Of a DNA stretch of 64,000 nt, positions 991 to 48,632 are shown piece after piece; position 1 is the first letter of the stretch; each line of letters starts with the position of its first letter. The notes beneath the pieces are model-generated. The model searched no databases, had not been told where the DNA came from, and saw only the letters and a list, made by a program, of their open reading frames with translations. Source of the DNA: Faecalibacterium sp. I4-1-79 (GTDB lineage: Bacteria; Bacillota; Clostridia; Oscillospirales; Ruminococcaceae); contig NZ_CP094467.1 of the NCBI RefSeq assembly GCF_023347235.1, forward strand, positions 1,240,001 to 1,304,000, written 5' to 3'. A program made the translations under genes and the position numbers.

Positions 991-1743
991 ATGACCGATC
1001 TGCATTGTCACATTCTGCCCGGCATGGATGACGGCGCAAAGGATACGGCAGTCTCGCTGGAGCTGCTGCGCAGGGAATATGAGGATGGTGTGCGCAACAT
1101 CGCGTTCACCAGCCACTTCAACAGCGAACGCACCACGGTAGAAGCCTTTACGGAAAAGCGGCAGACTGCCTTTGAACAGCTGACCGCCGCACTGGAAGGG
1201 CAGCCTATGCAGTTTGATTTCAAGCTGGGAGCAGAGGTGTTCTTCTCTCCCGGTCTGTGCGAGCTGGACACCCGGGCGCTGTGCATGGGGGACACCGCCT
1301 ATCTGCTGCTGGAGTTTCCCACCACCCACAAGCCGCATTTTATTCGGCAGACCCTGTACAATTTGCAGCAGCAGGGCATCGTGCCGTTGATCGCGCATAT
1401 CGAGCGCTACCCCTATGTGCTGGAGGATCCCACTCTATTGTACGACTGGGTAGCCGCCGGTGCCTATGCACAGATCAACGTGGGCACCCTGCTGGAACCC
1501 AAGCTCTGCAAAAAGCTGTGCAAGTTCATCCAGTGGGGACTGGTTCATGTCATCTCCACCGATACCCATTCCCCGGACAAGCGCCCGCCACACATGGCAC
1601 AGGGCGTGCAGCAGCTGGAAAAGCTGCTGGGTAAGGAAACTGCCGCCCGCATCGTGCACAACGGCGATGAGTTGTTCCACGATCAGGAGCTGGACGCTGT
1701 GACCCTGCATCAGCCCAAAAAGTTTTTGGGTAGATGGGTCTGA
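991..1743 (+). CDS. cpsB: PHP-family protein-tyrosine phosphatase, CpsB/YwqE type
   Basis: 250 aa. Metal-dependent phosphatase of the PHP fold that removes phosphate from the BY-kinase tyrosine cluster. The metal ligands are recognisable: LHCHILPGMDDGA at residues 4-16, TSHF near 40, IAHIERYP near 136 and STDTHSP near 190. Start ATG has an aagga site 9 nt upstream. It follows the kinase by 15 nt, and a perfect 10-bp hairpin (1763-1795) lies right after its stop, so it is probably the last strongly expressed gene of the visible capsule operon. The name is well supported by motifs and synteny. Confidence 0.93.
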   Translation: MTDLHCHILPGMDDGAKDTAVSLELLRREYEDGVRNIAFTSHFNSERTTVEAFTEKRQTAFEQLTAALEGQPMQFDFKLGAEVFFSPGLCELDTRALCMGDTAYLLLEFPTTHKPHFIRQTLYNLQQQGIVPLIAHIERYPYVLEDPTLLYDWVAAGAYAQINVGTLLEPKLCKKLCKFIQWGLVHVISTDTHSPDKRPPHMAQGVQQLEKLLGKETAARIVHNGDELFHDQELDAVTLHQPKKFLGRWV

Positions 1744-23016: not shown

Positions 23017-23127
23017 GTGACGATTTGGAATGGCTTCCGCTTTGCTCTAGCCATTATCAGCGGAAAATTTGTTTTTAATTTCGGGATAGCGGAGCGTCTG
23101 CGGACGCTCCGCTATCCCATTTTCACG
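23017..23127 (+). ncRNA. Structured 3' element, copy A (pseudoknot plus long hairpin)
   Basis: Sense to the upstream sortase gene. Helix P1 aatggct/agccatt (23029-23035, 23049-23055). The loop segment tccgct (23036-23041) is complementary to agcgga (23059-23064) behind P1, giving an H-type pseudoknot. After a T-rich linker comes P2, 16 bp perfect (23083-23098, 23103-23118), capped by TGCG closed by C-G (UNCG class), then cattttc. Two further copies are at 25702-25811 and 48525-48632. It may terminate transcription or stabilise the 3' end; RNA status is inferred from structure. Confidence 0.65.
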
Positions 23128-23436
23128 GGAAGGGGTCGTGACGGAAAACGGCAGCTCCGGAACCTGTTTCCTGCGGAAACGCGGCGCTGGGAGAAGATTT
23201 ATTCTCAAGGAAAGCGGTTTTGACGGAAGGATGAAGGCTGCGGGGACTGCCAAAGACCCGATTTCCAAGGAAAGTGGCTGCGAACGGTGTGAGCAGACTA
23301 GGGTAGCATACGCTGCTTTTTGCGTAAAAAGTCTGCGAAAACGGTTGAAAGTCCTTTTTATGGTATCCTGATTGTGCGATACTGTGTTTACCGGGGAAGT
23401 CCCGGGTACAAAACAGATACACAGGAGGGAAACACC
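23128..23436 (+). other. Gene-poor structured stretch before a 38-aa gene
   Basis: No convincing gene. A 77-codon frame at 23138-23371 has no ribosome site and looks like translated repeats. Three degenerate units share a tttcc...ggaaa hairpin core (near 23168, 23205 and 23260). A nested hairpin follows: gcagact/agtctgc (23293-23299, 23330-23336) enclosing tacgc/gcgta. A last small hairpin, ccggg/cccgg, lies near 23391-23408, ahead of the site aggaggg. Confidence 0.4.
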
Positions 23437-25646: not shown

Positions 25647-25701
25647 GCGTTTTCACGCAGGAATATGCAGTAGGAGCTGCCGTATATCTTTGTAATCCCC
25701 C

Positions 25702-25811
25702 TTGTGAAAATGGGATAGCGGAGCGTCCGCAGACGCTCCGCTATCCCGAAATTAAAAATATATTTTCCGCTGAATATGGCCAGAGCGCAAGCGGAGGCCA
25801 TTGAAAATCGT
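25702..25811 (-). ncRNA. Structured 3' element, copy B
   Basis: Minus-strand sense, starting about 17 nt after the stop of gene 25828-26202. P1 aatggcc/ggccat with one bulge (25796-25802, 25774-25781). Pseudoknot segments are at 25790-25795 and 25766-25771. P2 is identical to copy A (25712-25727, 25732-25747) with the same TGCG cap in the sense strand. Nearly identical to copy A over its length. Confidence 0.65.
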
Positions 25812-48467: not shown

Positions 48468-48506
48468 CCACGCTGCGCTTTTGCTTTGCCGTAGCGTGGG
48501 TTTTTG
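48468..48506 (+). terminator. Terminator of uxuAB
   Basis: cccacgct (48468-48475) pairs with agcgtggg (48494-48501), followed by ttttt. Confidence 0.88.
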
Positions 48507-48524
48507 TTTTGTAAAAATTGTTAT

Positions 48525-48632
48525 GTAAAAATAGACTCCCGGAGCGTCCGCAGACGCTCCGGGAGTTCGAAAAAACCATAATTGTTCCGCTATTCATGCG
48601 CAGAGCAAAGAGGAGCGCATGAAAAATCGTCA
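48525..48632 (-). ncRNA. Structured 3' element, copy C (diverged, compensatory changes)
   Basis: Minus-strand sense, starting about 9 nt after the stop of gene 48641-49171. P1 tcatgcgc/gcgcatga (48616-48623, 48595-48602) has a different sequence from copies A and B but pairs perfectly. P2 is 14 bp (48536-48549, 48554-48567) with a changed outer half and an unchanged inner half and TGCG cap. The agcgga linker is kept; its loop partner is tcctct, one mismatch. A T-rich tail follows. Confidence 0.65.

What the first reader, a model, noticed from the sequence alone, without database searches (positions are those of the whole stretch)
23017..23127. Dispersed 3' element with a predicted H-type pseudoknot and UNCG-capped hairpin (copy A and family)
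Three copies in 64 kb share one architecture: acgattt, helix P1, a loop containing tccKct, P1', agcgga, a T-rich linker, a 14-16 bp helix P2 capped by c(TGCG)g, then a short T run. In A and B the P1 loop segment tccgct is exactly complementary to agcgga behind P1, predicting an H-type pseudoknot. The UNCG cap exists only on the strand that is sense to the preceding gene. All three begin 9-17 nt after a stop codon. This is more than a plain terminator and I cannot name it. It may be a 3'-UTR regulator, a processing or stability element, or a mobile terminator.
Basis: partly seen in the sequence, partly recalled or inferred. Interest (0 to 1): 0.85.

Follow-up and report, generated by a model that had tools for sequence, protein, structure and literature searches.

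The report
Mobile palindromic repeat with swappable hairpins
The three look-alike sequences belong to a gut bacterium's large family of scattered, probably mobile DNA repeats whose main hairpin can be replaced wholesale between related species; they may help to end transcription, but they do not look like a dedicated regulatory RNA.

Summary
The three window copies belong to a Faecalibacterium family of about 150-160 places in this 3.23-Mb genome (147 covariance-model matches; 163 with pattern-only hits). Eight of 31 same-genus genomes hold 80-113 copies (capped count), four hold 1-4, and 19 none. Rfam is silent. P1 and P2 covary strongly. The pseudoknot does not: 0 double changes in 40 and in 113 copies.

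The unit looks like mobile DNA, not a 3'-UTR RNA. Neighbouring ends closer than 700 bp face tail to tail in 20 of 21 cases, mostly as 250-650-bp elements with ~24-bp terminal inverted repeats. Between same-direction genes, orientation is 24 sense to 27 antisense. Copies avoid divergent and favour convergent gaps. P2 can be replaced whole: in the clearest case the head matches 46/46 and P2 3/16. P2 almost lacks G-U pairs (0.8% against 7.1% in plain terminators).

Best reading: a MITE/BIME-like repeat carrying weak portable terminators; a new variant of a known kind. Nearest named analogue: pneumococcal SPRITE.

The parts
23017..23040 (+). Copy A: head / terminal repeat (family consensus GGGACGATTTnnAATGnGCTCCGC)
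   Evidence: the same motif bounds two-ended copies in inverted orientation
23030..23054 (+). Copy A: P1, arms 23030-23035 and 23049-23054
   Evidence: 99.2% and 97.9% of cells paired; 3 of 6 pairs with double changes in A1, 6 of 6 in A2
23036..23064 (+). Copy A: proposed pseudoknot TCCGC (23036-23040) with GCGGA (23060-23064); complementarity present, pairing not supported by covariation
   Evidence: 0 double changes
23083..23118 (+). Copy A: P2, perfect 16-bp palindrome arms around TGCG (23099-23102)
23119..23126 (+). Copy A: conserved ATTTTCAC behind P2, a weaker T run than in ordinary terminators
23127..23153 (+). Copy A: tail, shared by many copies (consensus about GGGnGGGGTCGTnAnGGnAAACGGCA)
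   Evidence: single positions conserved at 0.35-0.69 only
25685..25811 (-). Copy B, head to tail; G018 has it, G009 and G014 have a plain hairpin there
48506..48630 (-). Copy C, head to tail; G018 has it, G014 keeps P2 without P1, G009 and G028-G030 have other terminator-like hairpins

Best explanation
A high-copy, non-autonomous, probably mobile DNA repeat (MITE/BIME-like) of one Faecalibacterium sub-clade. The complete form is bounded by ~24-bp terminal inverted repeats (the heads). Behind a head come a small palindrome (P1), a ~16-bp palindrome that is usually perfect (P2) and a TTTTCAC run pointing inward; in 12 of 20 facing pairs both ends carry this module, in 8 one end is a bare terminal repeat. 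RNA polymerase entering past such a head meets a terminator-like hairpin within about 100 nt. Most copies are single ends. They lie mainly in gaps that contain a gene 3' end, where relatives can have ordinary terminators, and probably serve as weak portable terminators when the head faces the gene. P2 seems maintained as a DNA palindrome and can be replaced whole (ectopic gene conversion, tandem gain and loss, or templated repair). SHOWN: the family and its distribution, inverted-pair architecture, P1/P2 covariation, replacement of P2 at orthologous loci, G-U depletion, gap-type bias. SEEN BY EYE: ordinary terminator-like hairpins at orthologous sites. INFERRED: mobility by an enzyme not found here, termination activity, the mechanism of P2 exchange.
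For: 147 model matches in the genome; high copy in 8 of 31 genus genomes, absent from 19 (from 10 of the 22 genomes of good quality); 2 of 148 family genomes, own included, the other marginal. 20 of 21 neighbouring ends under 700 bp are tail-to-tail. 34 of 163 places have a facing terminal repeat with at most 5 mismatches within 800 nt, against 1, 0 and 5 in three control directions. Presence differs among close relatives: B, C, 2397907, the 2535655 pair absent in G014, 796961 absent in G018 and the 2883052 pair absent in G014, G018 and G009. Divergent gaps 4 of 84 with element against 40 of 181 without (p=3e-4); convergent 34 of 84 against 33 of 181 (p=2e-4) (the gaps without element come from the DNA fetched around copies). 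P2 arms perfect over 16 nt in 65 of 89 parsed hairpins; perfect Watson-Crick stems, of any length, in 15 of 74 plain terminators. G-U 12 of 1519 P2 pairs against 69 of 974.
Against: No transposase or autonomous partner found: the seven proteins scanned from between facing heads look like host genes, and Y1 transposases do not track the element strictly (6 of 8 high-copy genomes, 5 of 23 others). No clean empty site with a target duplication; gaps are mosaics. The T run is weak (mean 4.06 T in 8 nt against 5.84), and the terminator scan, which asks for 5 T in 8, flags neither A's nor B's P2. 27 of the 95 best copies are antisense to both neighbours, where they would not end those genes' transcripts. 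Only 102 of the 163 places have a head within 5 mismatches of the 24-mer; the rest are degenerate or lack the head. No RNA data were available.
Confidence: 0.65

Rival explanations
1. A structured 3'-UTR regulatory, processing or stability RNA with an H-type pseudoknot, sense to the preceding gene.
For: P1 and P2 covary; the C(TGCG)G cap is invariant in the 40 aligned own-genome copies; the three window copies lie 10-16 nt behind stop codons; P1 shows more G-U than A-C cells (14 against 5).
Against: No pseudoknot covariation; tandem-gap orientation 24 to 27; the head also occurs inverted as a bare terminal repeat without P1' or P2; P2 replaced whole beside an unchanged head; in P2, G-U 12 against A-C 10 cells, no sign of a sense-RNA constraint.
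Confidence: 0.08
2. A DNA-level architectural element (BIME-like cruciform or protein-binding site) kept by selection for chromosome organisation; termination is incidental.
For: Mostly perfect palindromes with almost no G-U, inverted-pair organisation, enrichment in convergent gaps, antisense copies common.
Against: Rapid presence/absence turnover and absence from 19 of 31 genus genomes argue against an essential role; no binding data.
Confidence: 0.15
3. Ordinary intrinsic terminators that look alike only because of shared composition.
For: Often at gene ends; relatives have terminator-like hairpins at the same sites (by eye).
Against: Long shared sequence outside the hairpin, weak T run, T run within 40 nt upstream in 31 of 87 copies, many of them an existing terminator, head pattern 103 against 0 in control.
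Confidence: 0.04
4. A REP/REPIN family moved by a Y1 tyrosine transposase (RAYT).
For: Palindromes, inverted pairs, high copy; Y1 hits in 6 of 8 high-copy genomes against 5 of 23 others.
Against: G018 (113, the cap) and G029 (96) have no Y1 hit; no GTAG tag; ~24-bp terminal repeats; the one own-genome Y1 gene lying beside a copy is in an insertion that G018 lacks at that site.
Confidence: 0.05

Closest known systems
SPRITE repeats of Streptococcus pneumoniae (PMC3049150; passages read)
   Same: Interspersed repeat with an 18-bp duplex resembling a Rho-independent terminator, terminal repeats, over-represented between convergent genes, close to gene 3' ends
   Different: SPRITE has a long U-rich tract and 4-nt terminal repeats; here ~24-bp terminal repeats, up to two inward-facing hairpins, P1, a weak T run, and P2 that can be replaced wholesale
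REP/BIME-type and CGTC-tagged palindromic repeats (PMC3733652; passages read)
   Same: High-copy intergenic palindromes, often inverted dimers; the outer end here reads ...AAATCGTCCC, which contains CGTC; CGTC repeats also lack a dedicated transposase
   Different: Those are 20-40-bp units tagged by an unpaired tetranucleotide, and the words Firmicutes, Clostrid- and Faecalibacterium do not occur in that paper's main text; here a ~125-nt half-unit with a ~24-bp terminal repeat and two palindromes
BOX and RUP of pneumococcus (same paper, passages) and bcr1 of Bacillus cereus (recalled; search listing only)
   Same: Small structured MITE-like repeats limited to a species group; BOX is modular
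   Different: No sequence relation was tested

Membership tests
Intrinsic (Rho-independent) terminator | Stable GC-rich hairpin | tested here: met
   P2 arms perfect over 16 nt in 65 of 89 parsed hairpins
Intrinsic (Rho-independent) terminator | U tract directly behind the hairpin | tested here: inconclusive
   a TTTTCAC-like run was found in 83 of 87 copies but with 4.06 T in 8 nt against 5.84 in 74 plain terminators; A and B not flagged by the scan
Intrinsic (Rho-independent) terminator | RNA 3' ends at the site | not testable with these tools
   no RNA data
MITE (miniature inverted-repeat transposable element) | Short, non-coding, multicopy, with terminal inverted repeats | tested here: met
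   two ends shown for 20 facing pairs (40 of 163 places), most places being single ends
MITE (miniature inverted-repeat transposable element) | Target-site duplication at clean empty sites | tested here: inconclusive
   no clean empty site, and no duplication seen by eye, at the sites compared; hence 'MITE-like' only
MITE (miniature inverted-repeat transposable element) | Related autonomous transposon | tested here: inconclusive
   seven proteins from between facing heads look like host genes; the genome was not screened for every transposase
REP/REPIN with RAYT | GTAG tag and cognate Y1 transposase | tested here: not met
   head is GGGACGATTT; two high-copy genomes lack a Y1 hit
Rfam RNA families | Score above the gathering threshold | tested here: not met
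   window 0 matches; five element loci only sub-threshold matches; three further loci only a neighbouring TPP riboswitch
H-type pseudoknot RNA | Covarying loop-linker helix | tested here: not met
   0 double changes in 40 and in 113 distinct sequences

The most novel reading that the evidence does not exclude
P2 is an exchangeable hairpin cassette: the family has a fixed landing frame (head ... TTTTCAC tail) into which different palindromes are installed and perfected at the DNA level, through a single-stranded or template-switching intermediate. Hairpin tips also act as entry points for other DNA: a ~110-nt insert in P1 loops, a ~100-nt insert in P2 loops, and in G018 an ~800-bp insert in place of a P2 apex. 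The covariation would then be made largely by a DNA process rather than by selection on RNA.
Probability: 0.25. Interest if true: 0.7.

Novelty: new variant of a known kind. Interest (0 to 1): 0.5.

Why it matters
It would explain part of the fast-changing intergenic DNA of a major human gut commensal, and supply a natural set of portable hairpins at gene ends. It is also a worked warning: strong base-pair covariation across repeat copies can come from wholesale replacement of DNA palindromes, so it need not mean a functional RNA. The G-U depletion and the G-U against A-C comparison are simple tests that help to separate the two.

Tried and rejected
Pseudoknot: tested on two alignments, no compensatory change (one search used a mis-registered structure and is discarded). 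A2 was fitted to the model's structure, so its P1/P2 counts lean that way. Rfam: nothing. RAYT/Y1: partly associated, not required. Autonomous partner between facing heads 700-5000 bp apart (nine such pairs): seven proteins scanned look like host genes; not all genes in those gaps were scanned. Viral contigs: 7 pattern hits, not examined. Of 69 genome contigs stretches, 13 lie outside Faecalibacterium; they were taken as chance and not examined. Target-site duplication: none seen by eye. attC/super-integron analogy (recalled): dropped because copies are dispersed and in both orientations. A first, cruder gene caller gave 66 of 107 upstream sense and 29 to 33 in same-direction gaps; it was replaced by a trained one (63 of 95, 24 to 27). 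Both are home-made. For 10 of the 27 antisense-to-both cases, Pfam supports the called strand for 10 of 10 upstream and 9 of 10 downstream genes. Leaving out members of facing pairs, the same-direction ratio is 16 to 21. Context counts use the 95 best-scoring of 147 matches. Orthologous P2 comparison: 26 comparisons chosen by hand; 18 had a perfect arm of at least 13 nt in the relative: 9 same, 6 replaced (3-5 matching positions), 3 partly different. In the six replaced cases the heads match at 30, 34, 35, 38, 44 and 46 of 46. Eight were not scored by that rule: some look swapped by eye, two look like the same hairpin with a mismatch (B in G018, 2393037 in G014), and at site A in G009 an insertion displaces P2. 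Literature: no paper on a Faecalibacterium repeat of this kind found (one search searched mobile terminator-like repeats in general). Papers seen only as passages: PMC3733652, PMC3049150; the rest as search listings.

Full report
WHAT IS THERE. The window is G000:C1:1240001-1304000 of a 3.23-Mb genome. Copy A lies behind a sortase-domain gene; the next long gene is a Na/Pi-cotransporter-like one.

THE FAMILY. Copy A gives 55 BLAST matches in its own genome. Forty copies were aligned (A1) and a covariance model built (R1). R1 finds 147 matches at E<=0.1 in the own genome among 150 scored candidates; weak ones are often only the P2 half. In the genus (31 genomes; at most 113 scored each) eight genomes, own included, hold 80 to 113, four hold 1 to 4 and 19 none; among the 22 genomes of good quality, 12 have it. 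In 148 genomes of the family two match, own included, the other at E 2e-5 (stricter filters). So it is clade-restricted and probably recent.

STRUCTURE. P1: 99.2% of cells paired, 3 of 6 pairs with double changes; P2: 96.7%, 13 of 16. On 113 distinct copies from other genomes (A2, fitted to the model) all 22 pairs show double changes. The proposed pseudoknot is 93.5% and 90.5% complementary but has no double change in either set, and on A2 it is no better than shuffles. TCCGC is better explained as part of the terminal repeat: it also occurs at ends that lack P1' and P2.

WHY IT LOOKS LIKE A DNA ELEMENT. Of 21 neighbouring ends closer than 700 bp, 20 are tail-to-tail and none head-to-head, which puts 40 of 163 places in such pairs; spacing is 246-651 bp in 19 pairs and 119 bp in one. 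In 12 of the 20 both ends are model matches (head, P1, P2); in 8 one end was found by the head pattern alone. Twelve printed pairs show ends of the form GGGACGATTTnnAATGnGCTCCGC ... GCGGAGCnCATTnnAAATCGTCCC. A facing end with at most 5 mismatches within 800 nt is found for 34 of 163 places against 1, 0 and 5 in three control directions; 102 of the 163 places themselves have a head within 5 mismatches. Where P2 is present its TTTTCAC run points inward, so polymerase entering past that end meets a terminator-like hairpin soon.

WHERE IT SITS. With a gene caller trained on the fetched DNA, gaps over 60 nt holding an element are 34 convergent, 46 same-direction and 4 divergent (n=84); gaps without one, in the same fetched DNA, are 33, 108 and 40 (n=181) (p=2e-4 for convergent, 3e-4 for divergent). 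Between same-direction genes the element is sense 24 and antisense 27 times (16 and 21 without members of facing pairs). Of 63 sense copies, 39 have the head within 30 nt of the stop codon. Pfam supports the called strands in 10 tested antisense cases (10 of 10 upstream, 9 of 10 downstream genes). The convergent bias is what was reported for SPRITE, RUP and BOX, read there as mobile repeats tolerated downstream of genes, with SPRITE perhaps co-opted as terminators (PMC3049150, passages).

TURNOVER. Close relatives G009, G014 and G018 are 93-97% identical over most of the neighbouring genes matched. Site B has the element in G018 but a plain hairpin in G009 and G014. Site C has it in G018, P2 without P1 in G014, and other terminator-like hairpins in G009 and G028-G030. 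Site A has it in all three, with a different P1 in G009 and G018. Site 2397907 has it only in G000. Site 796961 is empty in G018. Gaps are mosaics; I saw no clean empty site with a target duplication.

P2 CAN BE REPLACED AS A BLOCK. At 796961 the first 46 nt are identical between G000 and G014, yet the P2 arms match at 3 of 16 positions; at 2540818 G018 has head 44/46 and P2 3/16. Of 18 scorable comparisons, 9 have the same P2, 6 a replaced one and 3 a partly different one; 8 more were not scorable, and in the other replaced cases the head has also changed (30-38 of 46). At 2407001, G018 carries two hairpins in tandem, the second like G000's, which looks like an intermediate of gain and loss. 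At 2535655 the inside of a two-ended copy is mainly inverted in G009 relative to G000 while the heads stay in place. G-U pairs make up 12 of 1519 P2 pairs in 95 copies against 69 of 974 in 74 ordinary terminators of the same genome (p=6e-18; pairs are not independent events). In P2, G-U (12 cells) is no commoner than A-C (10); in P1 it is 14 to 5. So P2 looks kept as a DNA palindrome, while P1 may carry some RNA signal. Quasipalindrome template switching is one known route to such perfection (search listing and abstract openings; mechanism otherwise recalled).

FUNCTION. As an inference, sense copies close behind stop codons probably help to end transcription: P2 is stable, TTTTCAC is conserved, and relatives have terminator-like hairpins at the same places (by eye). 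Against this, the T run is weak, and many copies follow an existing terminator or are antisense. My own odds: mobile-repeat reading about 0.85, termination in sense copies about 0.5.

NOVELTY. No Rfam family and no paper found by five searches. The kind (a structured, MITE/BIME-like repeat with a terminator-like hairpin) is known; this family, its inward hairpins and the block replacement of P2 are the new part.

Noticed in passing
L014 about 1370-1490; L016 about 1600-1710 (-); L026 about 1600-1720 (-); L212 (G014): An almost identical ~110-nt insert sits in the P1 loop of copies with different P1 stems, so it seems to target or ride in that loop.
   Followed up: partly
L024, L225, L227 and ten motif hits in the fetched own-genome DNA: A ~100-nt insert (AAAGCCCCAGTGGGGCTTT...) in the P2 loop; all 10 motif hits lie 95-156 nt from a head (the fetched DNA was chosen around heads).
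   Followed up: partly
L206 (G018), site of G000 2393037: The P2 apex is replaced by about 800 bp that seems to hold a reverse-strand reading frame and its own hairpin (judged by eye).
   Followed up: no
L145 1827-1935: A TPP riboswitch (RF00059, 68.7 bits) lies directly behind a two-ended copy.
   Followed up: no
L035, L037, L324, L325 (interiors of long two-ended copies): Other recurrent modules (CTCCCTCAGTC...GCCAGCTCCCTC, GGAGAAGCGAAAAAAGCG..., a GGAGGGG/CCCCTCC-type hairpin) fill the interior; these gaps look like mosaics of several repeat families.
   Followed up: no
L002 3-1406 (-): A JetA (Wadjet) protein beside copy 3189751.
   Followed up: no
L165 about 974-1194 (G009, site A): About 80 extra nt between head and P2 in G009.
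   Followed up: no
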